In this document: piece after piece, positions 6,891 through 32,601 of the stretch
Layout: each line of letters starts with the position of its first letter
Position numbering within the stretch: the first letter of the stretch is position 1
Notes under the pieces: model-generated
The model's input: the letters and a program-made list of their open reading frames with translations, nothing else
What the model was told of the DNA's origin: nothing
The model's database searches: none
Origin: Zopfochytrium polystomum
Lineage: Eukaryota; Chytridiomycota; Chytridiomycetes; Chytridiales; Chytridiaceae
Reading direction: 5' to 3'
DNA: 64,000 nucleotides
NCBI GenBank assembly: GCA_025765615.1
Contig: JAIVFJ010000044.1
Span: forward strand, 310,001-374,000
Translations under genes and position numbers: made by a program

Positions 6891-6912
6891 AATTGGAATA
6901 GGGTGAGCCGGC

Positions 6913-9290: not shown

Positions 9291-9386
9291 AAAAACAGTA
9301 TTGTCAACAGTAATGGGTGCGGAGTGGAGTGGTGGGAAGTCGTGAAGGGGTTGTGAAAAAAGAAAAGAAATTTCATCGTGCCTGAC

Positions 9387-10290
9387 ATGTCAACTCAATC
9401 GTCGATGACCCCCCGACTGTTTTGCCTTGCCGACGACGTGCTGATTACAGTCTGCCGCTTCCTGACGCTTTCTGATCTCGTAAGCCTGTCTCACTGCTGC
9501 ACCCTTGCCCGATCGGTTGTCGCAGGCCGCGTCGTCAATGCATTGCTGCTTCGCCCACTTCTCCACATAACCCAAGCTTTAGCCACGGAAGCCAGCCGCC
9601 ACCACTGGGACAATCGATCAGCTGAGCCTGGTCCTTTCTCATTCTCAGCGCTGCATTGATTTGCGCTGCACGTTCGATATACGGGGCTTGGACTTCAATG
9701 ATGCCGTAACAGCCATAAAGTCTATCCCCACCCTATTTCCAATCGAATGTCTCGTGAGCAAGTTTGATGAACTTGGAGAACCACTTCTTGACCATCTTGT
9801 CACAGATGCTGTGAATGCATACTGTGGGGATGGAACCGTGAAGCCGGGATTTACTATTGCACTGGTACCTTTTGACATACGATTTGCATTCTGGAAAGAC
9901 TTGATGGAGACACCAAAGACCCGTCCTGATATGTACTTGCTCACCTGCAGTTTTGACCCAGTTCAGGCTGAAGCTGCATTCAACTACTTGGAATATCGTA
10001 TTCGGCTCTTTACTGAAAGCTATGATATGGTCGAGAATGAAGCAATGGAAAAAAACCAAGAAAGCTATGACAGCGATTGTGAATATTACGATAATGAGCC
10101 GGTCGAAGCGATGAAACAGAAACCATGGTTGCCATCAGTGCTGGTCGAAGCCCTTGTATCCCTTCTTCCAGCACTTGCTGCTTGCTCGATGGAAATGGTC
10201 CGGCAAGCTTGGGAACACATCTGTGTGCTTGTGTTTACTGCCAAAGCATCATTTCCGCACGCTCATATCGTTCCTGATTGGGTGTCTGGG
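9387..10290 (+). pseudogene. F-box-like protein gene truncated by telomere repeats, copy 1
   Basis: From the ATG at 9387 the frame encodes LADDVLITVCRFLTLSDLVS, which fits the F-box pattern (LP.D.L..I..fL...DL). This frame stops at 9659. A second frame resumes at 9649 after the acceptor-like CATTCTCAG, and the strong donor GTAAGC at 9480 is in the right phase, so an intron 9480-9648 is likely. Exon 2 encodes FDIRGLDFNDAVTAIKSIPT and an acidic Asp/Tyr-rich segment, then runs straight into TTAGGG at 10291 without a stop. The 3' end is therefore lost. F-box proteins recruit substrates to SCF ubiquitin ligases. The substrate-binding part is not recognisable. Confidence 0.55.
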
Positions 10291-10302
10291 TTAGGGTTAG
10301 GG
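10291..10302 (+). repeat. Interstitial telomere repeat, two TTAGGG units
   Basis: TTAGGGTTAGGG is joined directly to the broken F-box-like gene and followed by a run of G. It looks like a healed break that was later covered by more DNA. Confidence 0.85.
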
Positions 10303-11552
10303 GGGGGACAAAAACTTGCGCAATTTCCGTGGTGCCTTTGGTGGTCGTTGTCACCGGGGCGGCGCCGATGCGTCGACGTGCAGGTGAGATTCCGTGCAGG
10401 AGAGCGCTTTTGCCCCCGTTGGCGATCCCGGCCACGGCGAACGTGTGGTGATCGCCCTGGTGCGTATCTGCGTCGTGTCAATCGCTGTGGGATGCGATCC
10501 CCCTTGCTGGCCCATGAAAATAGCAGTAGTGGGACAGCGATTGAGCGCCAACGATCGCCTCTCCGGTGCGTCGATCTCCCTCCCTCGGGCTTGCGTGCGT
10601 CTTTGGAGGGGGTCCCGACCACCCCCCTTAACCCCCCCATCGGTCCTTGAGTGGGTGGGCGGTATCGCTGCCCATCCGCTCTCGCTTCCTCCGTCTCGAT
10701 CGGAACCCCTCGACCTCACGATTGCCTTCGTACCATCTGCAAGAGGTTGCCCATCGTCGATCTCGTACTTCGCAGGAACGGTCGAGAGGGGGTTGAGTCC
10801 CCCCTCCCGATCCTCCCCGCCCTGTCACGGTTTTCCTCGATGCTCCGCCTTCTGATGCCGCTGCTTTCTGTCGACGGTTTTGGGCAAGCAAGTGCTTCGC
10901 CCAACGCAAATGGTCCAGTGGGGAGCGCCATCTGGCGCGACCCCTTTGGCCGAAGGATGTGGCCACGCCTTGCAGCGCCGCCACTCGGTTTTCGGATATC
11001 GTCTCGTAACGAGTCTCTGTTTCTTCTTGTTTCCGTTCTGTTCTAATGCTTACTTATCCCTGTTGATTTTTTTCCAGGGATAAGCCTCTGATTTTTGCCT
11101 CTTTTTATTTCGCTTTCACTTCGAACCGCCCCTGTTGATTAGTCCGGGGGCTCCCGCATATGTTTTCGCTTTTTCGCTTTTTCTTCGATTTTTGCCTCTT
11201 CCTCGATCTTTGCTCATTCTTCGATCTCTGCTTTTTCTTCGAATTTTGCATTACCCTTCGATTTATGCTTTTCTTTCTTCGATCTGGCCCCCCTCGTTGA
11301 GGGGGGGCCTTACGCATTCCCACCCCCCCCGAAAGGGGGGGGCCGGGCCTCATAGTTTCCGTTGCTGGTTGTTCTTCGTTGGGTGTTAGTGTGGGTTTTT
11401 TCAAGGTTCGCCCTTTTTTCCCTCACGCCCGCACTCGGCGTATTCGGGCCTAGAAGCAGGTCTCTAACTGTTGTTTCCACTTCATCATTGGGCCGGTGAG
11501 GGTGGATTCGATCACCAAAACAGTTGTAGTAGATAATAAATTTCTTGAGGAG
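10303..11552. other. GC-rich spacer with hairpins, bounded by TTAGGG on both sides, copy 1
   Basis: Several frames of 70-150 codons exist on both strands, but none has protein-like composition or a recognised domain, so none is called. Three hairpins are visible: CTTATCCCTG (11053-11062) pairs with CAGGGATAAG (11075-11084), GGCCCCCCTC (11286-11295) pairs with the G-rich arm ending at 11309, and C8/G8 arms lie at 11322-11342. Between 11160 and 11285 a degenerate TTCGATTTTTGCC-type unit repeats. The end, ATAATAAATTTCTTGAGGAG, meets TTAGGG much as the non-LTR 3' ends do. This could be the 3' part of a third retroelement family, which is not proven. Confidence 0.4.
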
Positions 11553-11564
11553 TTAGGGTTAGGG
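11553..11564 (+). repeat. Interstitial telomere repeat, two TTAGGG units
   Basis: TTAGGGTTAGGG sits exactly at the 5' end of the tRNA-like leader of the non-LTR element. Confidence 0.85.
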
Positions 11565-11574
11565 AGGAGCCCAG

Positions 11575-11633
11575 TAGCTCAGTTGGTTAACACCTCTGGG
11601 TTTGCTGGTGAGGGGCGCCGGTTCGATCCCGGC
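11575..11633 (+). promoter_or_regulatory. tRNA-like Pol III internal promoter in the element leader
   Basis: The A box TAGCTCAGTTGG (11575-11586) matches the TRGCNNAGYNGG consensus, and the B box GGTTCGATCCC (11620-11630) fits GGTTCGANNCC. The B box sits in a perfect T-arm: GCCGG, loop TTCGATC, CCGGC (11617-11633). No proper acceptor or anticodon stem forms, so it is tRNA-derived rather than a tRNA gene. A second T-arm-like hairpin (GAGGG TTCAACT CCCTC) lies at 11948-11964. Another hairpin, GTACCTGG/CCAGGTAC, lies near 11753-11776. Confidence 0.65.
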
Positions 11634-11973
11634 AAAGGTACGAGGGGAAGAGCGTCTAAAAACCATCCGATAAGGACACCCCGACCCTCCTCTGGTAGCC
11701 CCTGGTGGTTAGTACGGTGAAAGCCGTGCGAGGTAGCTCAAATAACGGGAAGGTACCTGGCACGCTCCCCAGGTACTGGGCCGTCGCGGTTAAGTTGAGT
11801 GATGTCCTCCAATGACGGCTCCCCATAAGGACAGCTAAGGAGACTATACTGACCGGCGCGACTGATGAGAGCGGCTACCGGTGTGCTAAGCATGCTCAAG
11901 GTTTCACGGTGCCTAGTGAATAAAGTTGAGCCCCAGTTGGGGGGCCTGAGGGTTCAACTCCCTCCTAGGTACG

Positions 11974-12297
11974 GATGAGTGTGAACCCTGGAAACCCTCG
12001 CGCCTTCGATCAGGGGCTGAGGCTGAAGCTGCTGCTGTGCGTGCATATCTGAGCCGTATTGCTGGAATTCTGAACCACCCGACATTCCGTCCCTCTGTGC
12101 TGCTGGCAAAGTCTATCTGTGAATTTGTGCCCCGCCGGTTTGTGGCTGACCTGAAGGGGAAGCTTCGCGACCTGTCACACTTTCCCACCAAGGGGAAGGA
12201 GCCGGAGACGGGGGCAGAACCTTTAGAGACACCCAAGCCTCGTGGGGCTGAGGACACAGGAGCTTCCAGTGGTGCCGACGCTATGCTTGATGATTGA
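11974..12297 (+). pseudogene. C-terminal fragment of retrotransposon ORF1, copy A1
   Basis: The segment encodes about the last 107 residues of ORF1, from DECEPWKPSRLR to ADAMLDD. It joins the leader at 11974 in the same frame that is open from 11950, so the 193-codon deletion is in frame, but no ATG precedes it. The stop overlaps the ORF2 start by 8 nt. Confidence 0.7.
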
Positions 12298-15200
12298 TGG
12301 ACTTAGATTTGGATTTGTGAACTTGAACTGCTCGCTCTCAGGACATGTCAAGAACATAGACCAAGCATTTTCAGATATCCATTCAGACTATATTTTGTTG
12401 GCGGACACTGGGATCACTGTGGTGGAGAGTAACCCGTTGAGGGGATTGGTGGCTGACTCAAGGGGACCGGCGTTGGAGTTTGAGGAGCGGCTTGGGCATA
12501 AGGGCAAGAAGGGGGTATCCATTCATAAGGGCAGGAGGATGGAGGAGGACCTGGTGGTTCAGACATTGGAGAAGGACACAAAGGGGGAGTGGGTCATTGC
12601 GAGGATGTCAGAGATTATTATGGCAGTGGTGTACTTTGCACCCTCGACGGATTTGGAGGTGCTTCAGTCATTCTCAGCAACAGCAGACAGGATTGCAGGG
12701 GCTAATCCCCAGGCACCCTTTCTGATCATTGGAGATTTCAACACTTCACTGCAGGAGTACGGCTGTGCCCACTCGCAGCCCAGGCTGAGGGTGGACTGGT
12801 GGCGCGCTTGGATTGATGGTTCAGGATGGAGCAGGGTTGAGCCAGTTCGAGGCCAATGGACCACCTTCTCACCTAGAATTGCTGGCCCTGCAGGCAGGGG
12901 AGTCACTGACTTGCTCCTTGTGAATCGAGCTGGACTTGGAGCTGTGCATAACTTGGTTGTCCATGACGCACCTGAGGAACACTTGCCTTTCACAGACCAC
13001 AGGATGCTCACCTTTGAGCTTCGAACACACTTGACCATGAAGCCACCCTTTGAGAGGCTGAATGTGCGCAGGCTGATGCTGAGACAAGTCCAGTATGAGA
13101 AGAAACTTGCAGAGACCAGGAAGCCCTTGAGACAAGAGATTCACTCAGCGTGGAAGACTGTGAATGCGGCTGCTGTAGCCCAGGAGGAGTGGTCTTTTGA
13201 GCGCAGACGTGCCTGTGCAGACTCTGTATCTCAGTTGGTGGTGAAGTGGCTTGTGGACACTGGAATCCAAGTGGCTGGGAAGACCAAGTTTAGGGGTGGT
13301 GCAGGCGGCCCTGATGTCGAGGAGAAGCATTTGGAGGAGCTGAAGCGCCGGCGGGACTTGTCCCGCATGGAGGCTGAAGCCCACCCTGATGCTGATCCTG
13401 TCGGGCAGAAGGACGCCTGGGCAAAGTTCAGGCAGTGGAACCGGCTGACAAAGGTGGCCATCAAACGCTACAGGAAGAGGGTGTACTCTGCTGTGCAGGA
13501 CTTAGCTGTCAAGGACTTTGCTGCTGAAGCCAAGAGAATCAAGTGTCAGAAATCCAGAGTGGAGCGCACTCACTGTGCCCTTGACCCTCAGAAACTTCCA
13601 GATTATGCTGAGCACTTTAGGGGAACCATTGGCCATGAGCCAACTGGTACTGATGCCGTCAACCAGAATGTGTTAGCTGCCTGCAGTGCTGAACGACTCA
13701 TGGTGCCTCTGAAGCTTTCTGAAGTTGCCTGGATCAAGAAGAATGCTGTGGAAGAAGCCTGCAGGATTGCACCCCGGGGCAAAGCCCCAGGGGAGGATGC
13801 CCTGTTTGGCGAACTGGTGTGCATTGCCCCACATGTGGTGGCTCCTGTGTTGCAGAGATTCTTTCAGCTGCTTGCAGCCCTCCAGGTGGTTCCCACACTC
13901 TGGGGGATCGCGAATGTTGCCCTGGTGTACAAGAACAAGGGGGTGAACACTGATGTGGCAAACTACAGGCCAATCTCTCTGTGCTCAAGGTTGAGGCTGG
14001 TGTATGAGCGGGTGTTGGCCCCGCAGGTGGAAAGAGTGGTTGAAGGAATGATCCACCCTTCGCAGGGTGGGTTCAGGCGCCACAGGTCCACCATGGACCA
14101 GGCATTCACTCTGCATGAGCTTCAGCAACAGTACCCTGATCTGACTGTGGTGTACTTGGACATCAAGGCTGCCTATGATTGCACAAACAGGAATTATGTG
14201 TGGGAGTCCATCTGGAATGCCAAGAATGACAAGAGTCCTGAGTTTACCAGGAACCAGTTGCTGCCGATTCTCAGATCCTTGTTTGACTTTAATGCGTGCC
14301 AGCTTCTGGTCATGGGCCAGAAGTCTGATCAGATTCCAGTGACCCGGGGGTTTCTACAGGGAACTGTGCTGTCCCCAATGCTGTTCAATGTTGCCATCAA
14401 CTCGCTGCCTGAGGCGCTCTCCAGGGTGCCCCACAGCCAGTTGGAATGTGGTGGATTGAAGATCAACTCTCTGCTGTTTGCTGATGACTCTGCAGTGTTT
14501 GCAAGGAACAAGGCTGTCCTTCAGAATATGCTTGATGAAGTCCACAACTGGTCCCAGAGGCGGGGCATGACTTTTGCAGCACAGAAATGTGTTGTTGTTT
14601 CCAAGACAAGGAACCTGAGATTGCAGATGAATGGGGTGGTGCTCCCCCAGGAGAAGACCACACTGCAGCTGGGACTTGTGCGTGATTGCAACGGCATCGA
14701 CTTTGAGACGTCTCTGCAGATGAGGGTGAAGAAGACTGAGAAGATGCTTCAGTTTCTGAAATCTCGAGGGTTCAATGGCTGGGGATTCCGGCCTGTGAAT
14801 GCGTACAGGGTGTACATGTGCTTTCTGCGGCCCATGCTGGAGTATGGGTTTGCATTGAGGCCAAATTCAGAGGCCTTCTTGGCCCCGGCCCAGAAGGTCC
14901 AGGACATGTGTTTGCGCCAGGCTCTGTCTTTTGGGAAAACATCCAGCACTGTGGCAATGCATCTGATTTTTGGAGTTGTGCCGATGGTTGCACGCAACAA
15001 GATGCTGAACGCGAGATATTTCTACAGACTGCACCACATTCAGGACCAGAGAAACACCACTGCACACATGTACAGGCACATGGCTGAGCGGGGGAGGCGG
15101 GCTCCTGCAGGATCCCTTACCAGGCTCACTCTGTTCACACCGGATGTGGATCTATATTTTGGGTCGGTGCCACGGAAGGCCTTGGCACAGATTCCGTTTG

Positions 15201-16042
15201 TCAGACACAGGACTTATCCATATGACCTTGAAGTTACCAGATCTGAGCCCAAGAACATTGATGCTGTTGCTATGCAGAAGATGCACACTGTGTCACTTGA
15301 GAAGTATAAGGAAAAGGCCAACTTGACTGGAGTGGTGGCACCCCTGGTGGTCCCCCCTCACCGGGGGCCCTGCCAGGTGGTTCGTTCTGGTGCACTGTTT
15401 AACAGGAGGTGGTTGAGATGCCTTGTGGCTTGGATGGGTGGCCGTGTTGCCTATCACCAGGAGTGCAAGAAGTGTGATGCTGAGCTGGACAGGAACCATG
15501 CCTTGGAGTGTTCAGGTGTGCGCCGCCTCCTGGAGGCGGACCACCCTGAGTGCGTCCCAAGCGTGGAGCAGGCGAGGAGGAACATCACAGTGCTGGATCT
15601 GCTGCTGCAGACTCTGACTTTCTGGGCGCCCTACACAGCCAATGATGCAGATAAGATTCCTCAGGAGACGAGGGTGGCTTCAAAGAAACTGGGGATGAAG
15701 CTTGCTCGGCTGATTGCAAAGATTCGAGTGGAATGCGCCGGAATGAGGGACTTTGTGGATGCTTCAGAGACCACAGCAGAACAGGAGGCAGATTATTTGA
15801 TGGAAGCAGGGACAGTGGATGACAGGAGGGCGGATCTGAGGACTCGCATGCAGATGGCGCAGGTGCGGCGGCAAGCTAGAGAAGCTCTGCGTGCGCACTG
15901 GGATCCAGTGCGCAACAAGGGGTTTAGGGAATCGAGGAACAGGTGGCTGGCTAAGGAGACCCAGGGAGTGACGGGGAGGCCGGACAGATCCGGGTGGGTT
16001 GACTCTGATACAGAGAGCGGTGCTTCAGTGGGAGGTGGATGA
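12290..16042 (+). CDS. Non-LTR ORF2: APE endonuclease, reverse transcriptase, zinc knuckle (A1)
   Basis: A protein of 1250 residues that nicks target DNA and copies the element RNA there. The APE endonuclease spans about 1-245: VVYFAP, FLIIGDFN (148-151), TDLLLVN and TDHRMLTF (235-238). The usual catalytic Glu region reads LLADTG, with Asp at 39. The reverse transcriptase spans about 490-790: GKAPGEDALF, NYRPISL, YLDIKAAYD (D624), RGFLQGTVLSP and LLFADD (730-733). A C-terminal knuckle C1059-X2-C-X7-H-X3-C follows. There is no RNase H. The start is the ATG at 12290, which overlaps the ORF1 stop by 8 nt and suggests termination-reinitiation. A GTG-started extension to 12242 merely overlaps ORF1. 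The reading frame is intact. Confidence 0.9.
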   Translation: MIDGLRFGFVNLNCSLSGHVKNIDQAFSDIHSDYILLADTGITVVESNPLRGLVADSRGPALEFEERLGHKGKKGVSIHKGRRMEEDLVVQTLEKDTKGEWVIARMSEIIMAVVYFAPSTDLEVLQSFSATADRIAGANPQAPFLIIGDFNTSLQEYGCAHSQPRLRVDWWRAWIDGSGWSRVEPVRGQWTTFSPRIAGPAGRGVTDLLLVNRAGLGAVHNLVVHDAPEEHLPFTDHRMLTFELRTHLTMKPPFERLNVRRLMLRQVQYEKKLAETRKPLRQEIHSAWKTVNAAAVAQEEWSFERRRACADSVSQLVVKWLVDTGIQVAGKTKFRGGAGGPDVEEKHLEELKRRRDLSRMEAEAHPDADPVGQKDAWAKFRQWNRLTKVAIKRYRKRVYSAVQDLAVKDFAAEAKRIKCQKSRVERTHCALDPQKLPDYAEHFRGTIGHEPTGTDAVNQNVLAACSAERLMVPLKLSEVAWIKKNAVEEACRIAPRGKAPGEDALFGELVCIAPHVVAPVLQRFFQLLAALQVVPTLWGIANVALVYKNKGVNTDVANYRPISLCSRLRLVYERVLAPQVERVVEGMIHPSQGGFRRHRSTMDQAFTLHELQQQYPDLTVVYLDIKAAYDCTNRNYVWESIWNAKNDKSPEFTRNQLLPILRSLFDFNACQLLVMGQKSDQIPVTRGFLQGTVLSPMLFNVAINSLPEALSRVPHSQLECGGLKINSLLFADDSAVFARNKAVLQNMLDEVHNWSQRRGMTFAAQKCVVVSKTRNLRLQMNGVVLPQEKTTLQLGLVRDCNGIDFETSLQMRVKKTEKMLQFLKSRGFNGWGFRPVNAYRVYMCFLRPMLEYGFALRPNSEAFLAPAQKVQDMCLRQALSFGKTSSTVAMHLIFGVVPMVARNKMLNARYFYRLHHIQDQRNTTAHMYRHMAERGRRAPAGSLTRLTLFTPDVDLYFGSVPRKALAQIPFVRHRTYPYDLEVTRSEPKNIDAVAMQKMHTVSLEKYKEKANLTGVVAPLVVPPHRGPCQVVRSGALFNRRWLRCLVAWMGGRVAYHQECKKCDAELDRNHALECSGVRRLLEADHPECVPSVEQARRNITVLDLLLQTLTFWAPYTANDADKIPQETRVASKKLGMKLARLIAKIRVECAGMRDFVDASETTAEQEADYLMEAGTVDDRRADLRTRMQMAQVRRQAREALRAHWDPVRNKGFRESRNRWLAKETQGVTGRPDRSGWVDSDTESGASVGGG

Positions 16043-16331
16043 GTGTCTGGTTCTGTTGCCTCATCATTTGTTTTCCATTTGTTTTTTGTTGTGTTGACTT
16101 TATATTTTTAAGCTGTTGTCTGGTTTAGGTTTGTCTCTACTGCTCTTTCAGATTTCTTCTCTTCACCTTGGCCTCTTTGTTTTTCTTCCTCTTTGGCTTT
16201 CTCTCTCTTACATGTGCCTCTTCTGACCTCTCGGACTTTCTTTCTTCTCCCTCACATGCATGTACTTTTTTAACTTTCAAGCTGCAGATTCCTCACCTTC
16301 GGGTTGGAGCGAATAATACACTATTGAAAAG
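16043..16331 (+). other. Non-LTR 3' UTR with conserved terminal stem-loop (A1)
   Basis: A T-rich UTR ends in a hairpin at 16292-16309: CTCACC, loop TTCG, GGTTGGAG, with TG bulged on the 3' arm. The C(UUCG)G loop is a very stable tetraloop. GCGAATAATACACTATTGAAAAG then leads into TTAGGG. The same stem recurs in the divergent N2 element, which points to RT recognition of this 3' end. Confidence 0.65.
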
Positions 16332-16346
16332 TTAGGGTTAGGGTTA
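16332..16346 (+). repeat. Interstitial telomere repeat at the non-LTR/PLE boundary
   Basis: (TTAGGG)2TTA, directly followed by the truncated PLE leader (AGAAGGGGGGCGAC). Confidence 0.85.
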
Positions 16347-16778
16347 AGAAGGGGGGCGACAGGACGAAGAACTTGAAGGGGACCTCGACCCGACGCACGT
16401 GGGCGACGACGCTGTGTGACCGGTTGAAGGCTCAATGGCAGGGTGGGGCCAGAGCCTAGACTTGCCAGACTAGGTGGTGGTGTGGTGGTGGAGGAGAAGG
16501 GGCTTGCTTGCTTAAGAGAGGGAGGCCCCCCCTAGAAGGGTGACGGGGGCCTCGAGTGTTGGGCTTGTTGCTTGGTGTTTGAACTAGAGAAGTTTCTTGA
16601 CCAGAGGGACTTTATTCAGCGTGAGCTTTCGGCTGTTTTGGCAGCCTCTTCAGACGCTTGAGTGAACAAAGAAAAACCAAGGGTTAAGAAACTTCAAACC
16701 AAAGGGACCAACAAGGGTGATTGCAACACTTGGGGTTTGAAAGCAAGCAAGGGATAGGGGATCAAGGGTTGGTTGCAC

Positions 16779-16803
16779 TCACACACACACACACACACAC
16801 ACA
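16779..16803 (+). repeat. (AC)n microsatellite in the PLE leader fragment
   Basis: An uninterrupted AC/CA tract. Homologous tracts at about 22267 and 43303 differ in length by two bases. Confidence 0.85.
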
Positions 16804-16922
16804 AAGAAAGAATAAAAGACAGCATCATACCTCAAACCAAATGTCAAGGGCACAGGGGACACTTTTGGGTTTGGAAGAGTTTCTGGCAAGGAGAGGGGTG
16901 AAAGGGGGGGGCCCTGCCAGGC

Positions 16923-16930
16923 TTTATATA
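16923..16930 (-). promoter_or_regulatory. TATA box of the PLE promoter, left fragment
   Basis: The minus strand reads GGGTATATAAAGCCTGG, a textbook TATA box in a GC-rich setting, oriented toward the leader. Transcription would start near 16890-16900 and run left. Confidence 0.55.
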
Positions 16931-16996
16931 CCCCCAGCCCAAGGGGGTCAAGCCATGAAAGGAAATGGAATGAATGAAACAGCAAAAAAGGAAAAA

Positions 16997-17690
16997 GTGA
17001 TTCCAAAGGTGATACCAAAGGTGATTCCAAAGGAGGGGTGATTCCAAAGGTGATTCCAAAGGAAAGGTGATTCCAAAGGTGATACCAAAGGTGATTCCAA
17101 AGGAGAAGTGATACCAAAGGTGATTCCAAAGGAGAGGTGATTCCAAAGGTGATTCCAATGGTGATTCCAATGGTGATTCCAGTGGAGGGGTGATTCCAAA
17201 GGTGATTCCAAAGGAGAGGTGATTCCAAAGGTGATTCCAATGGAAGGGTGATTCCAAAGGTGGTTCCAATGGTGATTCCAATGGTGATTCCAAAGGGAAG
17301 GGTGATTCCAATGGTGATTCCAGTGGTGATTCCAAAGGTGATTCCAATGGAAGGGTGATTCCAAAGGTGATTCCAATGGTGATTCCAATGGTGATTCCAA
17401 AGGGAAGGGTGATTCCAATGGTGATTCCAGTGGTGATTCCAATGGTGATTCCAATGGAAAGGTGATTCCAAAGGTGATTCCAAAGGTGATTCCAGTGGTG
17501 ATTCCAATGGTGATTCCAATGGAAGGGTGATTCCAAAGGTGATTCCAAAGGTGATTCCAGTGGTGATTCCAGTGGTGATTCCAATGGTGATTCCAAAGGG
17601 AAGGGTGATTCCAATGGTGATTCCAGTGGTGATTCCAGTGGTGGTTCCAAAGGTGATTCCAAAGATTCCAAAGAGATTCCAACCAAAAAG
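16997..17690 (+). repeat. 12-bp minisatellite GTGATTCCAAAG, long form
   Basis: More than 50 units of GTGATTCCAAAG with variants ending AATG or AGTG, sometimes offset by short AAGG or GAGG inserts. Because 12 is a multiple of 3, long stop-free frames (ESPLESPL, GITIGIT, NHHWNHHW) exist on the minus strand. They are artefacts of the repeat. It lies just upstream of the TATA box, where tandem binding sites would be expected. Confidence 0.9.
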
Positions 17691-17767
17691 AGGAAGGGAT
17701 TCACCACAAAGGACCCCTCTGGGCGTCTGACACTGCCCAAAAAGGCAACTTCCATAAAAGGAAGGTG

Positions 17768-17850
17768 GTCACATGACCGCCATGTGACCAGTCACGTGAC
17801 CCCCATGTGACCAGATCACGTGATCCCCACGTGACCCAGATCACGTGACC
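17768..17850. promoter_or_regulatory. Cluster of seven E-box-like sites (CACGTG/CATGTG)
   Basis: In 83 bp there are four CACGTG cores, one CACATG and two CATGTG, most flanked by GT..AC or AT..AT (GTCACGTGAC, ATCACGTGAT). Such sites bind bHLH proteins; TCACGTGA is the classic Cbf1-type site. They lie between the minisatellite and degenerate telomere repeats. The density is far above chance; the binding factor is unknown. Confidence 0.6.
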
Positions 17851-17877
17851 CCCCTTCTAACGTGGCGCGAGGCGGAC

Positions 17878-17949
17878 GGTTAGAGGTTAGGGCGGTTAGG
17901 GTCAGGGTGGTTAGGGTCAGGGCCTTAGGGTTAGGGTTTAGGGTTAGGG
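17878..17949 (+). repeat. Degenerate interstitial telomere tract at the PLE 3' end
   Basis: Several TTAGGG units mixed with TTAGGGC, TCAGGG and TTTAGGG variants. The last TTAGGG (17944-17949) touches the antisense 3' end of the PLE. This is the product expected when a G-strand 3' end primes reverse transcription of PLE RNA. Confidence 0.8.
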
Positions 17950-18086
17950 CCAGTGGCGAAGGCGTCTAGAAAGAGGGGGTGTGGTGTGGAAGGGGCTGGA
18001 GGTTGAAAGGAAGCCAAGAGAGAGAGTGTGGTCGCAAAGTCCTTGGGATTGGTCCGTTCGAATAGCAAAGAAATGCTGGATCGTCT

Positions 18087-20309
18087 TCAAGAAGGCCGAT
18101 TGCTCTTGCGGCTGTCTTTGCGCTTTTTGGCAAAAGGCTGCCACTGACGCCAGGGATCTCGGTAAGGATCAGGGGGAGGACCCTTTGGCTTTGGTTTAGG
18201 GTCGAAGGGCGTCGGAGGCGGTGGTCTTGGAGGATCAAAGAGGTCCGGTGGCGGGCTCTGGGGCGTCACCGGGACTTTGGGGTCTCGAAGCTTTGTGAGG
18301 ATCGAGCCGACGGACGGGTTGCTGCGTAGCGCAAGGACCATTCTTGGCGGGTTTCTGTCCCAAATCTCATGGACTTGGTCCTCGTGGGTGTTGAGAACAG
18401 GTCCGATTTGAAGGGCCGAGACTTGGGGGGCGTGCCGGACGACAAAGGGGAGAACCTTGTCTTTGGGGCGGTCGGCGGGCGGGTGGAGCCACCGAGGCCT
18501 GTCTGCATAGCTGACTGAAGCAAAGATTGGCTCCAGGAACTTGCGTGGATAGCCCCGAGCTTGAAGTCGTTGGCGGAAAAGAGCTCGGGTGGCCAGGAAG
18601 GTTGATTCGGACGTTGAGTTGCGCACATACCGAATCAGTTCGCCGCGGATGAAGCCCCTCTTGAGGCTCGAGGGGTGGAACGAGGCCGGGCCAAGGTAGG
18701 CGTAGGTGTTGAGCGGTTTTTGGTAGGTGCTGAACACGAGGGAGGCTTCATCGCTGTCGTCGCTGGTGCGGCGTAAGTTGATGTCGAGGTCGAGGAAGGC
18801 GGCATGGGTGGTGCTGCGGTTGACTGTGAGTCGAAGTACACCGGGCCGTGAGGACGTGAGCAAGCCGTGAAGAAAGTCCACGTCGTCCGGTCCGCAGCAG
18901 AGGACCATGAAGAGGTCGTCAATGTACCTTCCGTACAGGGGGCAACGGATGCGTCTGTGCTGGTTGCTGATGATCCTGTAGACCCCGGGGACGGATTCAA
19001 AGACAGCGAACCCGTAGAGGTTTGCAATGACAACGGCCATGTTGGTGCCCATGGCCATGCCACCGCGCTGCCGGAAGACCGTTCCCTGAAAGCTGAAGGC
19101 GTTGGCGTCAAAAACCCACTGTATCAACTGAAGGATCTCGGGGCGGATGGTGTCTCTGCCGTGATCACGGAGCCAGGAGTTGAGGTTGTTGTTGAGAGAT
19201 CGAATGACGTCTGCCACATGCATGTTGCCGTAAAAGTTTTCCACATCCATGGTGACGAGCAGGCAGTTTTCTGCTGGGAGAACTGGCACTTGGGTCTCGG
19301 CGATCTGAACGAGATGCCGAGAGTCTTTCAGGATGAACGGGAGGCTGTCCACGATGGGCTGGAGCACCGCGCAGATAATGCGCGAAGCGTTGGTGGTGAT
19401 CCAGTTTGTCGAAGCGACGATGGGCCGAAGGGGGACAGCCAGGCCTGGACCGAGGTTGAGCATGTCGACGGGTTTGAGCTTGTGTATCTTGGGGAGGCAG
19501 TAAAAGTTCGGCACGGTGAACGACCTGAAGCCGTCGACAGAGTCTTGCAGAAGTTCCAGTTGCTGCCGAGTGAACCGGGAGCCATACTCCCTGACGAACT
19601 TGGTGACGAACGCCAGGTGTTTCCGGAAGAAGGCGGGAAGATCTGCTGGAGCCAGAACGGTGTAGTTGTCGCTCTGGAGGTGCTCGGTGACGAGTCTGTT
19701 GTAGTCGTCAGTGTCCAGGACGACCAAGCCGAGGTTCTTGTCTGCGGCTCGGAAGGTGAGGTTGCGCTGCTTGGCCAGCTTGTGGGCTAGGCGGAGCAGG
19801 GACCGGCCGCGTTGCTGTTTCTTGTACAGTGGCGAAGCCTTGTCCAGGGGCTTGCTTTTTTGACAGTCGTCAAGCCACTTGAAGCTGCCGGTCAGGGCGC
19901 GGCGGATGGAGCGCGCGATTTCAAAGACGGGGACAGGTACGTTGTCCGGGGGCGGGTAGGACTTGGGCGCGGTGAACAAGCGAGGGTCAAAGTCCGGGTC
20001 GTCGGGCGTGTTCTGGTGACGGAACTGGACCGACAGACGGTGGGTGAACGAGTGAAGGGCTTCATCGAGCTCGTCGTAGGTGAGCGGACGAGCGAAAGGG
20101 ATGTGCTTGGAGCCGTGGGTGAGAAGCCTTTGAGTCTGGGGCGAGAGGGTGGCTGAAGAAAGATTGAAGAAGAGAGGTTTCTTTGTAGGAGGAGAAGAGG
20201 AAGAAGTTGAATCCACAGGGCCGGCGGTCTTGGTTGAGAGACGATATGAGGGACGTGTTCTGCAAGAGACTGAGATGCAGATGTCGCGATGCTGCTGCAG
20301 CCACCTCAT
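18087..20309 (-). CDS. PLE reverse transcriptase ORF2 without GIY-YIG domain (P1)
   Basis: A 740-residue reverse transcriptase of the Penelope class. Motifs in order: ADKNLGLVVLD (189-199), LPKIHK (272-277), RPIVAS (295-300), catalytic MDVENFY (D355), RGGMAMGTNMA (415-425), catalytic YIDDLF (462-467), STYQKP (527-532), and HPSSLKRG and GELIRYVR (545-563). The PLE-type thumb/linker follows to about 675 (PFVVRHAP, LRSNPSVGSILTKL). Where other PLEs continue into GIY-YIG there is only a Pro-rich basic tail ending KKRKDSRKS. A nuclease-free enzyme must use existing 3' ends such as telomere tips. The ATG overlaps the ORF1 stop as ATGA, so reinitiation is likely. The frame is intact. Confidence 0.93.
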   Translation of the reverse strand: MRWLQQHRDICISVSCRTRPSYRLSTKTAGPVDSTSSSSPPTKKPLFFNLSSATLSPQTQRLLTHGSKHIPFARPLTYDELDEALHSFTHRLSVQFRHQNTPDDPDFDPRLFTAPKSYPPPDNVPVPVFEIARSIRRALTGSFKWLDDCQKSKPLDKASPLYKKQQRGRSLLRLAHKLAKQRNLTFRAADKNLGLVVLDTDDYNRLVTEHLQSDNYTVLAPADLPAFFRKHLAFVTKFVREYGSRFTRQQLELLQDSVDGFRSFTVPNFYCLPKIHKLKPVDMLNLGPGLAVPLRPIVASTNWITTNASRIICAVLQPIVDSLPFILKDSRHLVQIAETQVPVLPAENCLLVTMDVENFYGNMHVADVIRSLNNNLNSWLRDHGRDTIRPEILQLIQWVFDANAFSFQGTVFRQRGGMAMGTNMAVVIANLYGFAVFESVPGVYRIISNQHRRIRCPLYGRYIDDLFMVLCCGPDDVDFLHGLLTSSRPGVLRLTVNRSTTHAAFLDLDINLRRTSDDSDEASLVFSTYQKPLNTYAYLGPASFHPSSLKRGFIRGELIRYVRNSTSESTFLATRALFRQRLQARGYPRKFLEPIFASVSYADRPRWLHPPADRPKDKVLPFVVRHAPQVSALQIGPVLNTHEDQVHEIWDRNPPRMVLALRSNPSVGSILTKLRDPKVPVTPQSPPPDLFDPPRPPPPTPFDPKPKPKGPPPDPYRDPWRQWQPFAKKRKDSRKSNRPS

Positions 20310-20432
20310 TCTTGCCGGGTGGATTTTCTTCCTCTTTCTCCGCCGGATCCTTCGCCGCCTGAGACTGGTCGTTTGTTTGTCTCGCGACCTTGCCGTCGTC
20401 CCTGCTGCTGCTGCTGCTGCCGGCGCTGCAAG

Positions 20433-20465
<33 letters not shown>

Positions 20466-21787
20466 CCGCGGGGCTTTGATTGACGGTCGAAGGTGTGGGT
20501 GTTTTGTTTCTTGCCGCGGTTGTCCTTTTGGTTGTTGCCTCTGCCTGGTGTTGGAGATCTGCCGCGCGAGCGAGATTGGCTCTTGTTCTGGCCAGTAGAC
20601 CTGGACCGCCGGTCGACGGCTGGAGAACGTGACTCGCTTCGGCCTTGGCGCTGCTGATTTTTCTGTTGTGGGCGAGAGGCGTTGCGTTTGGACTTGAGAG
20701 GTTGTTTGCCCCGGGGTCTGGATGAAGACCGAGCTTGGGCCGTCTGTTCCTTGGGGCGACTCGATGAGGAGCGGTTTCTTGAGGAGCGACGGCCTTTTCC
20801 GTTTCCCAACAGAGTTTTGAGTTCTGCAAGTTGGCGGGCAAGCTCTGAGATCCTGTCGTCAGGAGGAGGAGGGTCCGTACTACTATTGCTAGACGTCAGC
20901 GCCGTGGTGACGGCGTTCGAATCCTGGCCTTGCAGCCCCTCTGGCTGTTGCTGCTGCTGCTGCTGCTGCCGAGTTGCTGCTTCTTGTTTGCTTTTGGCCT
21001 TGTCTGAAGCGCGCCGCAGTTTCCTATCAAGATGGGCTCTTTGGCGGTCAGTGAAGCTTGAGACAGTCCGGTTGTAGGCGTCTAGGAAGGCTGTGTGTCG
21101 AGGATTCTTGACGTGGTGTACGGCCAAGAGGGAGCGCACTTGATCGACATCGACCGCGGTCACGGCAGCAGCAGAAGAACCACGCGAGGAGGAGCCAACC
21201 CCCGTCGAAGGAAGGAGTCCAAGCGAGGACTGGAGCTGCTGGAGCATGTCTTGGTTGATGATGGTGTGCGCGTTGAGGTCAACAACGTCTGACAGGAATA
21301 GGCTGTAGGTGTTGCTGAAGAGGTGGTTGAGACGGTTGAAGTTTGCAGACTCCATCCCAACCAAGTGACGAGTGGCGAGCTGTTTGGCTTGGAGCTCGAT
21401 GTGCGCGAGGGCCGACTTGGGCAGGGTGATGCCAGAGACGGAGAACTTGACGTGAGAAGGAAAGACACCGGATCGGTATTCCTGGGCAAGCTTGAGCGCA
21501 CGCTGGTACGATTTATCCCGGGCAAAGTAGAGGCGAGCGAGGGACTGGGCGCGTTCTTCAGCCTTGGCAAGTTCTTGCTTTGAGACCGGTAAGGCAAAGG
21601 CAAGGGCCAGGTGGCGGCTGTAGACGGCGTCCATCACCGAAGAGCGAGGCGGAACTTGTGATTCTGCGAGGCCGTCGGTGTAGTCGGCGTACGTGCCTGG
21701 GGACCAGCTTTCAGGTAAGGCGTCTGGCACCTCGTACTCGGTGTCTGCGTCCATGGGGTCGTAGTGGAGGTCGTCGTCGACAGGCAT
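20306..21787 (-). CDS. PLE ORF1, coiled-coil RS-rich protein (P1, upstream ATG out of frame)
   Basis: A protein of 493 residues from the ATG complementary to 21785-21787. It has an acidic N-terminus (MPVDDDLHYDPMDADTEY), a helical region to about 265, polyQ (274-281), a short coiled coil (DDRISELARQLAELKTLL, about 310-328) and a long Arg/Ser/Gln-rich tail (333-493, with SRSRGRSPTPGRG). Such a tail suggests RNA binding, as ORF1 proteins do in retroelement particles. In copy P2 an ATG 11 codons earlier (MTPPDAPLSGS) is in frame. Here a G run near 21800-21806 is one base longer and puts that ATG out of frame. Confidence 0.85.
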
Positions 21788-22406
21788 GGAACCAGAGAGG
21801 GGGGGCGTCCGGTGGCGTCATCTTGAGTGAAGTTAGGAAGGGGGGGCGACAGGACGAAGAACTTGAAGGGGACCTCGACCCGACGCACGTGGGCGACGAC
21901 GCTGTGTGACCGGTTGAAGGCTCAATGGCAGGGTGGGGCCAGAGCCTAGACTTGCCAGACTAGGTGGTGGTGTGGTGGAGGAGAAGGGGCTTGCTTGCTT
22001 AAGAGAGGGAGGCCCCCCCCTATGAGGGTGACGGGGGCCTCGAGTGTTGGGCTTGTTGCTTGGTGTTTGAACTAGAGAAGTTTCTTGACCAGAGGGACTT
22101 TATTCAGCGTGAGCTTTCGGCTGTTTTGGCAGCCTCTTCAGACGCTTGAGTGAACAAAGAAAAACCAAGGGTTAAGAAACTTCAAACCAAAGGAACCAAC
22201 AAGGGTGATTGCAACACTTGGGGTTTGAAAGCAAGCAAGGGATAGGGGATCAAGGGTAGGTTGCACTCACACACACACACACACACAAAGAAAGATTAAA
22301 AGACAGCATCATACCTCAAACCAAATGTCAAGGGCACAGGGGACACTTTTGGGTTTGGAAGAGTTTCTGGCAAGGAGAGGGGTGAAAGGGGGGGGCCCTG
22401 CCAGGC
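21788..22406 (-). other. PLE 5' leader with a likely intron (P1)
   Basis: This lies between the TATA box and ORF1. On the minus strand, CCTAACTTCACTCAAG immediately precedes the ORF1 ATG of copy P2, a good branch site plus 3' splice site. A possible donor is TTTGAG|GTATGA near 22318. An intron of about 500 nt would contain the AC repeat. Introns in the 5' part are known for Penelope elements. Splicing here is inferred. Confidence 0.45.
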
Positions 22407-22414
22407 TTTATATA
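22407..22414 (-). promoter_or_regulatory. TATA box of the PLE promoter (P1)
   Basis: Minus strand TATATAAA in the same context as at 16923 (GGGTATATAAAGCCTGG). It lies about 590 nt upstream of ORF1 and just downstream of the 12-bp repeats. Confidence 0.55.
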
Positions 22415-22480
22415 CCCCCAGCCCAAGGGGGTCAAGCCATGGAAGGAAATGGAATGAATGAAACAGCAAAAAAGGAAAAA

Positions 22481-22720
22481 GTGATTCCAAAGGTGATACC
22501 AAAGGTGATTCCAAAGGAGGGGTGATTCCAAAGGTGATTCCAAAGGAAAGGTGATTCCAAAGGTGATACCAAAGGTGATTCCAAAGGAGAAGTGATTCCA
22601 AAGGTGATTCCAAAGGAGAGGTGATTCCAAAGGTGATTCCAATGGTGATTCCAATGGAAGGGTGATTCCAAAGGTGATTCCAAAGGAGAGGTGATTCCAA
22701 TGGTGATTCCAATGGTGATT
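22481..22720 (+). repeat. 12-bp minisatellite, short form, truncated at the A2 junction
   Basis: About 20 units of GTGATTCCAAAG/AATG. The last unit is broken (GTGATT|TCTTACATC), marking the rearrangement breakpoint with block A2. Confidence 0.9.
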
Positions 22721-27815: not shown

Positions 27816-27825
27816 AGGAGCCCAG

Positions 27826-27884
27826 TAGCTCAGTTGGTTAACACCTCTGGGTTTGCTGGTGAGGGGCGCCGGTTCGATCCCGGC
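27826..27884 (+). promoter_or_regulatory. tRNA-like Pol III internal promoter (A2)
   Basis: A box 27826-27837, B box 27871-27881, with the same T-arm as in A1. Confidence 0.6.
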
Positions 27885-28224
27885 AAAGGTACGAGGGGAA
27901 GAGCGTCTAAAAACCATCCGATAAGGACACCCCGACCCTCCTCTGGTAGCCCCTGGTGGTTAGTACGGTGAAAGCCGTGCGAGGTAGCTCAAATAACGGG
28001 AAGGTACCTGGCACGCTCCCCAGGTACTGGGCCGTCGCGGTTAAGTTGAGTGATGTCCTCCAATGACGGCTCCCCATAAGGACAGCTAAGGAGACTATAC
28101 TGACCGGCGCGACTGATGAGAGCGGCTACCGGTGTGCTAAGCATGCTCAAGGTTTCACGGTGCCTAGTGAATAAAGTTGAGCCCCAGTTGGGGGGCCTGA
28201 GGGTTCAACTCCCTCCTAGGTACG

Positions 28225-28548
28225 GATGAGTGTGAACCCTGGAAACCCTCGCGCCTTCGATCAGGGGCTGAGGCTGAAGCTGCTGCTGTGCGTGCATATC
28301 TGAGCCGTATTGCTGGAATTCTGAACCACCCGACATTCCGTCCCTCTGTGCTGCTGGCAAAGTCTATCTGTGAATTTGTGCCCCGCCGGTTTGTGGCTGA
28401 CCTGAAGGGGAAGCTTCGCGACCTGTCACACTTTCCCACCAAGGGGAAGGAGCCGGAGACGGGGGCAGAACCTTTAGAGACACCCAAGCCTCGTGGGGCT
28501 GAGGACACAGGAGCTTCCAGTGGTGCCGACGCTATGCTTGATGATTGA
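28225..28548 (+). pseudogene. C-terminal fragment of ORF1 (A2)
   Basis: The same in-frame leader fusion and deletion as at 11974, identical as read. Confidence 0.7.
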
Positions 28549-31500
28549 TGGACTTAGATTTGGATTTGTGAACTTGAACTGCTCGCTCTCAGGACATGTC
28601 AAGAACATAGACCAAGCATTTTCAGATATCCATTCAGACTATATTTTGTTGGCGGACACTGGGATCACTGTGGTGGAGAGTAACCCGTTGAGGGGATTGG
28701 TGGCTGACTCAAGGGGACCGGCGTTGGAGTTTGAGGAGCGGCTTGGGCATAAGGGCAAGAAGGGGGTATCCATTCATAAGGGCAGGAGGATGGAGGAGGA
28801 CCTGGTGGTTCAGACATTGGAGAAGGACACAAAGGGGGAGTGGGTCATTGCGAGGATGTCAGAGATTATTATGGCAGTGGTGTACTTTGCACCCTCGACG
28901 GATTTGGAGGTGCTTCAGTCATTCTCAGCAACAGCAGACAGGATTGCAGGGGCTAATCCCCAGGCACCCTTTCTGATCATTGGAGATTTCAACACTTCAC
29001 TGCAGGAGTACGGCTGTGCCCACTCGCAGCCCAGGCTGAGGGTGGACTGGTGGCGCGCTTGGATTGATGGTTCAGGATGGAGCAGGGTTGAGCCAGTTCG
29101 AGGCCAATGGACCACCTTCTCACCTAGAATTGCTGGCCCTGCAGGCAGGGGAGTCACTGACTTGCTCCTTGTGAATCGAGCTGGACTTGGAGCTGTGCAT
29201 AACTTGGTTGTCCATGACGCACCTGAGGAACACTTGCCTTTCACAGACCACAGGATGCTCACCTTTGAGCTTCGAACACACTTGACCATGAAGCCACCCT
29301 TTGAGAGGCTGAATGTGCGCAGGCTGATGCTGAGACAAGTCCAGTATGAGAAGAAACTTGCAGAGACCAGGAAGCCCTTGAGACAAGAGATTCACTCAGC
29401 GTGGAAGACTGTGAATGCGGCTGCTGTAGCCCAGGAGGAGTGGTCTTTTGAGCGCAGACGTGCCTGTGCAGACTCTGTATCTCAGTTGGTGGTGAAGTGG
29501 CTTGTGGACACTGGAATCCAAGTGGCTGGGAAGACCAAGTTTAGGGGTGGTGCAGGCGGCCCTGATGTCGAGGAGAAGCATTTGGAGGAGCTGAAGCGCC
29601 GGCGGGACTTGTCCCGCATGGAGGCTGAAGCCCACCCTGATGCTGATCCTGTCGGGCAGAAGGACGCCTGGGCAAAGTTCAGGCAGTGGAACCGGCTGAC
29701 AAAGGTGGCCATCAAACGCTACAGGAAGAGGGTGTACTCTGCTGTGCAGGACTTAGCTGTCAAGGACTTTGCTGCTGAAGCCAAGAGAATCAAGTGTCAG
29801 AAATCCAGAGTGGAGCGCACTCACTGTGCCCTTGACCCTCAGAAACTTCCAGATTATGCTGAGCACTTTAGGGGAACCATTGGCCATGAGCCAACTGGTA
29901 CTGATGCCGTCAACCAGAATGTGTTAGCTGCCTGCAGTGCTGAACGACTCATGGTGCCTCTGAAGCTTTCTGAAGTTGCCTGGATCAAGAAGAATGCTGT
30001 GGAAGAAGCCTGCAGGATTGCACCCCGGGGCAAAGCCCCAGGGGAGGATGCCCTGTTTGGCGAACTGGTGTGCATTGCCCCACATGTGGTGGCTCCTGTG
30101 TTGCAGAGATTCTTTCAGCTGCTTGCAGCCCTCCAGGTGGTTCCCACACTCTGGGGGATCGCGAATGTTGCCCTGGTGTACAAGAACAAGGGGGTGAACA
30201 CTGATGTGGCAAACTACAGGCCAATCTCTCTGTGCTCAAGGTTGAGGCTGGTGTATGAGCGGGTGTTGGCCCCGCAGGTGGAAAGAGTGGTTGAAGGAAT
30301 GATCCACCCTTCGCAGGGTGGGTTCAGGCGCCACAGGTCCACCATGGACCAGGCATTCACTCTGCATGAGCTTCAGCAACAGTACCCTGATCTGACTGTG
30401 GTGTACTTGGACATCAAGGCTGCCTATGATTGCACAAACAGGAATTATGTGTGGGAGTCCATCTGGAATGCCAAGAATGACAAGAGTCCTGAGTTTACCA
30501 GGAACCAGTTGCTGCCGATTCTCAGATCCTTGTTTGACTTTAATGCGTGCCAGCTTCTGGTCATGGGCCAGAAGTCTGATCAGATTCCAGTGACTCGAGG
30601 GTTTCTACAGGGAACTGTGTTGTCCCCGATGCTGTTCAATGTTGCCATCAACTCGCTGCCTGAGGCGCTCTCCAGGGTGCCCCACAGCCAGTTGGAATGT
30701 GGTGGATTGAAGATCAACTCTCTGCTGTTTGCTGATGACTCTGCAGTGTTTGCAAGGAACAAGGCTGTCCTTCAGAAGATGCTTGATGAAGTCCACAACT
30801 GGTCCCAGAGGCGGGGCATGACCTTTGCAGCACAGAAATGTGTTGTTGTTTCCAAGACAAGGAACCTGAGATTGCAGATGAATGGGGTGGTGCTCCCCCA
30901 GGAGAAGACTACACTGCAGTTGGGACTTGTGCGTGATTGCAACGGCATTGACTTTGAGACGTCTCTGCAGATGAGGGTGAAGAAGACAGAGAAGATGCTT
31001 CAGTTTCTGAAATCTCGAGGGTTCAATGGCTGGGGATTCCGGCCTGTGAATGCGTACAGGGTGTACATGTGTTTCCTGCGACCCATGCTGGAGTATGGGT
31101 TTGCGTTGAGGCCAAATTCAGAGGCCTTCTTGGCCCCGGCCCAGAAGGTCCAGGACATGTGTTTGCGTCAGGCTTTATCTTTTGGGAAAACATCCAGCAC
31201 TGTGGCAATGCATCTGATCTTGGGAGTGGTGCCAATGGTTGCACGCAACAAGATGTTGAACGCGAGATATTTCTACAGACTGCACCACACTCAGGACCAG
31301 AGAAACACCACTGCACACATGTACAGGCACATGGTGGAGCGGGGGCGGCGGGCTCCTGCAGGATCCCTCACCAGGCTCACTCTGTTCACACCAGATGTGG
31401 ATCTCTATTTTGGGTCAGTGCCACGGAAGGCCTTGGCACAGATTCCGTTTGTCAGACACAGGACTTATCCGTATGACCTTGAAGTTACCAGATCTGAGCC

Positions 31501-32593: not shown

Positions 32594-32601
32594 TTGCCGC
32601 A

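What the first reader, a model, noticed from the sequence alone, without database searches (positions are those of the whole stretch)
16332..22720. Two retroelement classes use the same TTAGGG but in opposite orientations
All seven non-LTR copies lie on the + strand with their 3' end touching TTAGGG, as expected if an APE nick on the C-strand primes copying. Both PLEs lie on the - strand with their 3' end touching the last TTAGGG on the + strand, as expected if the G-strand 3' end primes. The nuclease content of each element predicts its orientation. Two retroelement classes co-occupying one telomere is unusual and suggests complementary routes of chromosome-end growth.
Basis: partly seen in the sequence, partly recalled or inferred. 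Interest (0 to 1): 0.85.

Follow-up and report, generated by a model that had tools for sequence, protein, structure and literature searches.

The report
Two jumping elements using telomere-like DNA
Near a chromosome end of what is probably a chytrid fungus, one kind of jumping element inserts again and again into a short telomere-like word that each insertion copies anew, while a second kind is joined to telomere ends in the opposite direction.

Summary
The window ends 2.8 kb before a contig end, with TTAGGG pointing outwards. It holds three near-identical blocks: both PLEs stem from one event, and two LINE copies are recombinants.

Genome-wide the orientation rule is strict in what I read. 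94 of 94 LINE-type 3' junctions are followed on the sense strand by TTAGGGTTAG or a degenerate form. 30 of 30 PLE 3' ends read (of 34 found) abut TTAGG-like sequence on the other strand.

The two classes use TTAGGG differently. The APE-type LINEs enter an 11-bp word, TTAGGGTTAGN, and duplicate it: the 11-mer is array-specific (58 of 62 within-array pairs identical; shuffle mean 17, maximum 35) and flanks single insertions. No end abuts three perfect repeats; many copies lie deep inside contigs. Each insertion re-creates its target, which explains the chains.

The PLE shows no GIY-YIG. It joins telomeric arrays, other PLEs or apparently broken ends by its 3' end; at one tip a truncated PLE carries a telomere array. 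This fits the known endonuclease-deficient PLE model. A telomerase domain is present. 'Complementary chromosome-end growth' is supported only for the PLE.

The parts
6470..10290 (+). host-like part of block 1; the same sequence starts blocks 2 (22721) and 3 (43759)
   Evidence: self-comparison; no mismatch between block 1 and blocks 2 or 3
10291..10301 (+). 11-bp target word TTAGGGTTAGG between host-like DNA and element C
10303..11552 (+). element C, 1.25 kb, no Pfam match in the one ORF tested that overlaps it; copies at 26554-27803 and 47593-48842
11553..11563 (+). 11-bp word after C
11565..16331 (+). LINE A1; 5' part identical to A2, 3' part identical to A' (mosaic)
16332..16346 (+). TTAGGGTTAGGGTTA: 11-bp word plus 4 bases, between LINE A1 and PLE1
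16347..21832 (-). PLE1, full unit up to its 5' end; its 3' end is at the left
17878..17949 (.). telomere-like tract embedded in the PLE; at C63 a telomere array and at C267 another PLE begin at the same point inside this tract
18087..20858 (-). PLE reverse transcriptase ORF (stop to stop), YIDD box, no GIY-YIG match
21833..21837 (+). TTAGG between PLE1 and the next, truncated PLE copy
21838..22720 (-). 5'-truncated second PLE copy, joined without homology to block 2 at 22720/22721
27816..32582 (+). LINE A2
32583..32593 (+). 11-bp word between A2 and A'
32594..37367 (+). LINE A', 5'-truncated
37368..37382 (+). TTAGGGTTAGGGTTA between A' and PLE2
37383..43758 (-). PLE2 with the same truncated second copy; duplicate of PLE1
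48855..53621 (+). LINE A3, 2 mismatches to A1, same mosaic
53622..53632 (+). 11-bp word between A3 and B'
53634..56272 (+). LINE B', 5'-truncated inside the ORF, RVT_1 kept
56273..56283 (+). 11-bp word between B' and A''
56285..61630 (+). LINE A'', longest copy, with tRNA-like head
61631..61641 (+). 11-bp word between A'' and B''
61643..64000 (+). LINE B'' with APE-type endonuclease; runs off the window

Best explanation
Two different systems meet here. (1) The A/B LINEs, and the short C element probably moved by them, are sequence-specific. The APE endonuclease nicks the C-strand exactly 5' of the word TTAGGGTTAGN; reverse transcription starts there, so the element's 3' end always abuts TTAGGG. 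The other strand is cut 11 bp further on, so the 11-mer is duplicated. Each insertion leaves an intact target on both sides, and later copies land in it, giving head-to-tail chains of full and 5'-truncated copies. Full telomere arrays are not needed: short telomere stubs and chance look-alikes serve. (2) The PLE has no endonuclease. It is copied onto an exposed G-strand 3' end, so it lies with its 3' end against TTAGG, on the opposite strand. Repeated rounds give tandem PLEs, and a truncated PLE can be capped again by telomerase, for instance inside its own embedded telomere-like tract. In the window a PLE sits on a 15-bp telomere stub and the LINEs fill that stub between host DNA and PLE; the end was then tandemly duplicated and reshuffled by recombination between LINE copies. 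Shown: junction orientation, 11-bp sharing, mosaic copies, PLE at one tip, no GIY-YIG match. Inferred: nick positions, which LINE moves C, that the PLE came before the LINEs, the duplication route.
For: 94 of 94 LINE/C junctions read carry the word or a degenerate form in phase, 71 exactly TTAGGGTTAG. 58 of 62 within-array pairs share the first 11 bases; shuffle mean 17.0, maximum 35 in 10,000; base 12 is free. Different families share an array's private variant (C102, C201, C321, C21). Six C copies whose left flank is no known element end have the same 11-12 bases on both sides (L049, L057, L062, L063, L071, L076); 21 of 30 C loci have the matching 9-mer upstream. No A/B/C end followed by three perfect repeats, while (TTAGGG)3 itself occurs 338 times. 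PLE: 30 of 30 contexts read in one orientation; 13 tandem PLE-PLE, 17 other. C63 tip: truncated PLE running into a TTAGGG array. GIY-YIG found in relatives P0009 and P0011 but not in the window's PLE ORFs. Telomerase_RBD on C88. A1 = A2 5' part + A' 3' part.
Against: 4 of 62 within-array pairs differ (C88, C151). Array sharing could in part reflect recombination that copies spacers, although duplicate junctions were removed. 9 of 30 C loci show no matching 9-mer in the 1.5 kb held. No empty allele was found: block 1 looked like one but is a recombinant. The PLE in L031 and L035 abuts only one TTAGGG-like word, so the 'telomeric' label is weak there. That the PLE preceded the LINEs rests on the short stub only. 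The third PLE's 331 bases differ from PLE1 by 2 mismatches and 6 gap columns. The APE match of the A copies is below Pfam's cut-off.
Confidence: 0.8

Rival explanations
1. One reading: both classes insert into the telomere repeat array itself, on opposite strands, as two complementary ways of lengthening chromosome ends.
For: Strict opposite orientation; 43 of 76 A/B ends lie within 30 kb of a contig end, where 16% of the bases lie, and 36 of these 43 point outward.
Against: No LINE end abuts three perfect repeats; 11-bp word private to each array, degenerate sites; 33 of 76 A/B ends further in, 14 of them outward; telomerase domain and TTAGGG caps present.
Confidence: 0.1
2. The (TTAGGG)2 spacer is carried by the LINE RNA as a 3' tail, and chains arise by template jumping between RNAs.
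For: Constant 11-12-bp spacer between elements.
Against: Spacer variants follow the array, not the family, and stand on both sides of single insertions.
Confidence: 0.04
3. The three blocks, and hence the impression of many copies, are an assembly artefact of one repeat.
For: No mismatch in the host-like and C parts of the three blocks; the contig ends inside the next PLE.
Against: Blocks differ in LINE content and in 78 positions of A1 against A2, in a clean mosaic pattern. Chains with the same spacers are found on many other contigs. It would not touch the junction evidence.
Confidence: 0.12

Closest known systems
Endonuclease-deficient Penelope-like elements (Athena of bdelloid rotifers; Coprina of fungi, the latter recalled)
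   Same: No endonuclease domain, transposition at exposed chromosome 3' ends, telomeric repeats added to the truncated 5' end (PMC3846280 background passage); telomeric repeats embedded in Athena (PMC10088271 passage).
   Different: Closer kinship with Athena or Coprina not tested here; no hammerhead motif found.
TRAS and SART of Bombyx mori
   Same: LINEs with an AP-like endonuclease (stated for SART1) and TTAGG specificity; the two families insert in opposite orientations (PMC7265360 introduction).
   Different: SART1 needs at least three TTAGG repeats (abstract) and those elements lie in telomeric arrays; here an 11-bp word suffices, no end abuts three perfect repeats, and the 3' end has no poly(A).
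MoTeR (Pyricularia) and FoTeR (Fusarium)
   Same: Fungal LINEs bound to TTAGGG-type sequence (PMC12857005 passages).
   Different: Restriction-like endonuclease and 5' end toward the terminus; here APE-type and, near ends, 3' end mostly toward the terminus. FoTeR TSDs could not be identified (section 19).
Hebe plus Athena in Adineta vaga
   Same: An APE LINE and two EN-deficient PLEs in one telomere, head to tail (PMC2861651 passages).
   Different: Hebe copies have 7-12-bp TSDs; the passages seen give no fixed target word. Here the two classes lie in opposite orientations.
Tx1-1_ACar of the anole
   Same: Named among elements inserted in telomeric repeats (PMC10088271 passage).
   Different: Clade and target details not compared here.

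Membership tests
Endonuclease-deficient PLE | PLE-type reverse transcriptase | tested here: met
   23 protein matches down to E 4.8e-43, among them GIY-YIG-bearing PLE-like proteins P0009 and P0011; YIDD box (motif name recalled)
Endonuclease-deficient PLE | No GIY-YIG endonuclease | tested here: met
   No match in four PLE ORFs of the window, while P0009 and P0011 match
Endonuclease-deficient PLE | 3' end joined to the G-strand of telomeric repeats | tested here: met
   17 non-tandem contexts of 30 read, all on the expected strand; two with a single TTAGGG-like word only
Endonuclease-deficient PLE | Truncated 5' end capped by telomeric repeats | tested here: met
   One case, C63
Endonuclease-deficient PLE | Falls with Athena/Coprina in an RT tree | not tested
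   No named reference sequences gathered
Telomere-specific APE LINE (TRAS/SART type, R1 clade) | AP-type endonuclease plus RT | tested here: met
   Exo_endo_phos 32.5 bits (cut-off 24.5) in B'', 21.5-22.6 bits in A copies; RVT_1 in A and B copies
Telomere-specific APE LINE (TRAS/SART type, R1 clade) | Insertion within telomeric repeat arrays | tested here: not met
   No A/B/C end followed by three perfect TTAGGG; many contig-internal copies
Telomere-specific APE LINE (TRAS/SART type, R1 clade) | R1 clade | tested here: inconclusive
   Best solved-structure matches are LINE-1 ORF2 (8.8e-20), R2 weaker (7.2e-10); endonuclease search gave only spurious hits; no tree
Telomere-specific APE LINE (TRAS/SART type, R1 clade) | Poly(A) 3' tail | tested here: not met
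   A/B ends read ...TTGAAAAG and C ends ...TTGAGGAG directly before TTAGGG
MoTeR/FoTeR | 5' end toward the chromosome terminus | tested here: not met
   Near contig ends 36 of 43 A/B ends have the 3' end outward
Sequence-specific LINE with TSD | Fixed target word duplicated at insertion | tested here: met
   11-bp sharing; no empty allele seen

The most novel reading that the evidence does not exclude
A two-step subtelomere economy: nuclease-free PLEs seal chromosome ends whose telomere has dwindled to two or three repeats, and the buried stub becomes the landing site of an APE LINE whose 11-bp target is renewed at each insertion, so that one lost telomere seeds an endlessly extendable LINE array. 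The LINE recognises the scar of telomere failure, not the telomere.
Probability: 0.3. Interest if true: 0.65.

Novelty: new variant of a known kind. Interest (0 to 1): 0.5.

Why it matters
In telomere-targeted LINEs the target duplication is hidden by the repeats; the FoTeR authors could not identify TSDs for that reason (PMC12857005 section 19). Here degenerate and array-private targets reveal it: 11 bp with a sharp word, TTAGGGTTAG. That makes the endonuclease's cut sites directly testable and explains LINE chains without template jumping. The genome also shows an apparently endonuclease-free PLE at a chromosome tip in an organism with a telomerase domain, and it warns that copies in one subtelomere are not independent observations.

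Tried and rejected
(1) I first took block 1 (A|stub|PLE) as the empty site of block 2 (A|A'|stub|PLE). One search showed that A1 is a mosaic of A2 and A', so block 1 is more likely a recombination product; the argument was dropped. (2) RNA-tail or template-jumping origin of the spacers: rejected because variants follow the array, not the family. (3) Hammerhead or other known RNA: no Rfam match at gathering score in the window; three weak matches of unrelated families below it in 16300-22800. (4) tRNA gene at the LINE head: ARAGORN finds none, only A- and B-box words. (5) Clade of the LINE: solved-structure searches only, the endonuclease one giving spurious matches; no tree. (6) One search used a wrong gap length and found nothing; corrected. 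(7) Print: searches of the held library for chytrid + telomere + non-LTR + TTAGGG (3 papers), Zopfochytrium (7), Tx1-1_ACar (2), at least four of telomeric repeat / target site duplication / non-LTR retrotransposon / site-specific / SART1 (20, 15 listed) and at least three of telomeric repeat / Tx1 clade / target-specific / non-LTR (9) showed no description of these elements by title or start of abstract. One search (four terms) found no paper. Most subscription papers are not held.

Rows dropped: one row of 95 (C151:13964, a coordinate error of my script) before the count of 94; duplicate junction sequences, leaving 77 of 94. In one search the row L039 showed the wrong one of two matches; the right one is.
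Full report
SETTING. The window is G000:C44:310001-374000 in an 80.16-Mb assembly of 761 contigs. C44 is 376,797 bases long, so the window stops 2.8 kb before the contig end. Of the contig ends that I fetched because they carry TTAGGG arrays, six right ends (C15, C20, C42, C49, C63, C76) end in TTAGGG on the + strand. So in the window + is taken as the G-strand and the right as the outer side. The best protein match is a Zopfochytrium polystomum gene model (85% identity over 17% of the LINE ORF), so the host is probably that chytrid or a relative; this is not proven.

WHAT IS IN THE WINDOW. Self-comparison shows a block beginning at 6470, 22721 and 43759. Each block reads: 3.8 kb of host-like DNA, TTAGGGTTAGGG, a 1.25-kb element C, TTAGGGTTAGGG, then one or more LINEs (A or B families) each followed by such a spacer, and finally TTAGGGTTAGGGTTA and a PLE on the other strand. 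Between block 1 and blocks 2 and 3 the host-like part and C show no mismatch; PLE1 and PLE2 are 99.75% identical. The junction of the truncated PLE copy with the next block is the same at 22720 and 43758 and shows no homology beyond a base or so. Over 5,352 alignment columns, LINE A1 has no mismatch to A2 in about the first 3,300 and none to A' in the rest; A3 shares this pattern. So the seven LINE copies stand for at most five insertions and the two PLEs for one.

THE LINES. The ORFs carry RVT_1 and an APE-type endonuclease match (32.5 bits in B'', over the cut-off of 24.5; 21.5-22.6 in A copies, under it). In the genome the A/B 3' end occurs 156 times and the C 3' end 52 times with up to three mismatches. 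I read 94 distinct junctions (64 A/B, 30 C). In all 94 a TTAGGGTTAG-like word follows in phase on the sense strand: 71 exactly so, the rest degenerate (for example ATAGGGTTAG, TTAGGGATAG, TTAGGATTAG, TTACAGTTAG, TCAAGGCTTAGG, TTAGTGGTAG). The pattern of a slightly looser A/B end plus TTAGGGTTAG has 134 matches (not nested in the 156). The A/B or C end word followed by three perfect repeats has none.

THE TARGET DUPLICATION. Junctions on one contig and strand no more than 16 kb apart were taken as an array. In 41 arrays (77 junctions after removing duplicated sequences) 58 of 62 within-array pairs have the same first 11 bases; shuffling spacers among arrays gives a mean of 17.0 and a maximum of 35 in 10,000. 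The four exceptions are in C88 and C151. Base 12 is free. Different families share an array's private variant (C102 TTAGGGTTAGT; C201 TTAGGGTTAGC; C321 TTAGGGATAGG; C21 ATAGGGTTAGG). Six C copies whose left flank is no known element end (L049, L057, L062, L063, L071, L076) have the same 11-12 bases on both sides; 21 of 30 C loci show the matching 9-mer upstream within the 1.5 kb held, nine do not. I read this as an 11-bp target site duplication in which each new copy lands in a duplication left by an earlier one. Bases A3 and T8 of the word are invariant in 41 of 41 arrays.

WHERE THE LINES LIE. Of 76 A/B ends on contigs of known length (80 typed of 100 listed of 156 found; four dropped for unknown length), 43 lie within 30 kb of a contig end (16% of the bases of those contigs) and 36 of these 43 point outward; of the 33 further in, 14 point outward. 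Copies of one array are not independent, and contig ends are not all chromosome ends. LINEs are enriched near ends but not confined to them, for example C19 at 285-287 kb of 534 kb.

THE PLE. The RT ORF has a YIDD box and a proline-rich tail. No GIY-YIG is found in four ORFs of the two copies, while two database relatives match it in the same call. The 3' end occurs 34 times. Of 30 contexts read, 13 are PLE-PLE tandem junctions with TTAGG between. The other 17 have TTAGGG-like words on the expected strand and none on the opposite strand in the 60 bases counted (L039 judged by eye). L023, L025 and L027 share one junction sequence, and L031 and L035 have just one such word, as after joining to a broken end. 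Random 60-mers from this contig have 0.15 such words per strand. On C63 two PLEs follow a degenerate telomere array; the outer one is cut inside its own embedded telomere-like tract and runs on as a TTAGGG array to the contig end. On C267 another PLE is attached at the same internal point. This is the behaviour described for endonuclease-deficient PLEs (PMC3846280 background passage). Two PLEs do not fit a simple end position: C16 (internal) and C25 (- strand at 468 kb, contig length not fetched).

TELOMERASE. Two exon-like Telomerase_RBD matches over the cut-off lie on C88. Only this domain was sought; activity is not shown. One contig end (C20) has a TTAGGG array directly on a LINE broken at an internal TTTAGGG. 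Retroelements are therefore read as additions to a telomerase system.

COMPARISON. Opposite orientation of two LINE families on one telomere repeat is known for TRAS and SART (PMC7265360 introduction). MoTeR1 and FoTeR point their 5' end to the terminus, and FoTeRs carry a restriction-like endonuclease domain (PMC12857005 passages). An APE LINE and EN-deficient PLEs on one telomere are known from Adineta (PMC2861651 passages). Adding internal sequence to failing ends, with tandem subtelomeric arrays, is described for Pyricularia (PMC8381367 passages) and would suit the blocks here. New, as far as the searches named above go, are the 11-bp word, its duplication as the engine of chains, and the contrast between word-seeking LINEs and end-joining PLEs.

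HOW LIKELY. Junction orientation: shown for what was read. 11-bp TSD and self-renewing target: about 0.9. PLE as a nuclease-free element primed at G-strand ends: about 0.9. PLE before LINE in the window: about 0.6. Tandem growth of this end by break-induced copying: plausible, not tested.

Noticed in passing
window 11565-11640, 27816-27890, 48855-48930, 56285-56360: The full-length A LINEs begin with a tRNA-like head: A-box TAGCTCAGTTGG at +10 and B-box GGTTCGATCCC at +55. These four are the only such pairs in the window on either strand; ARAGORN calls no tRNA. A Pol III-type promoter on a LINE would be unusual.
   Followed up: partly
G000:C16:472068-493256: LINE/C/PLE arrays face each other: + copies up to a PLE at 477858, then - copies from 481947, about 70-90 kb inside the contig. 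It could be a fused pair of chromosome ends or an assembly join.
   Followed up: no
L020 (G000:C16 near 477858): About 60 bases of LINE head run directly into TTAGGG repeats and then a PLE: a break healed by telomere repeats and then joined by a PLE.
   Followed up: no
L015 (G000:C20 right end): A LINE is cut at an internal TTTAGGG, the site at 15923-15929 in the window copy, and continues as a telomere array.
   Followed up: partly
window 2643-3569 (-): ORF with D5_N and DUF5906 matches, primase-helicase-like as in large DNA viruses (naming recalled), just inside the block region.
   Followed up: no
window 22720/22721 and 43758/43759: The truncated PLE copy is joined to the start of the next block without homology, and the same join occurs twice; it could mark an end-joining or break-induced copying event.
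   Followed up: partly
G000:C3:709074 and C218:95512; C15:1018 and C262:68226; C16:472094 and C226:97818: Pairs of contigs share identical junctions and following sequence: haplotype or segmental duplicates, so genome-wide counts overstate independent insertions.
   Followed up: partly
G000 as a whole: (TTAGGG)3 occurs 336 times on + and 2 times on -; telomere arrays sit almost only at right contig ends, an oddity of the assembly.
   Followed up: no
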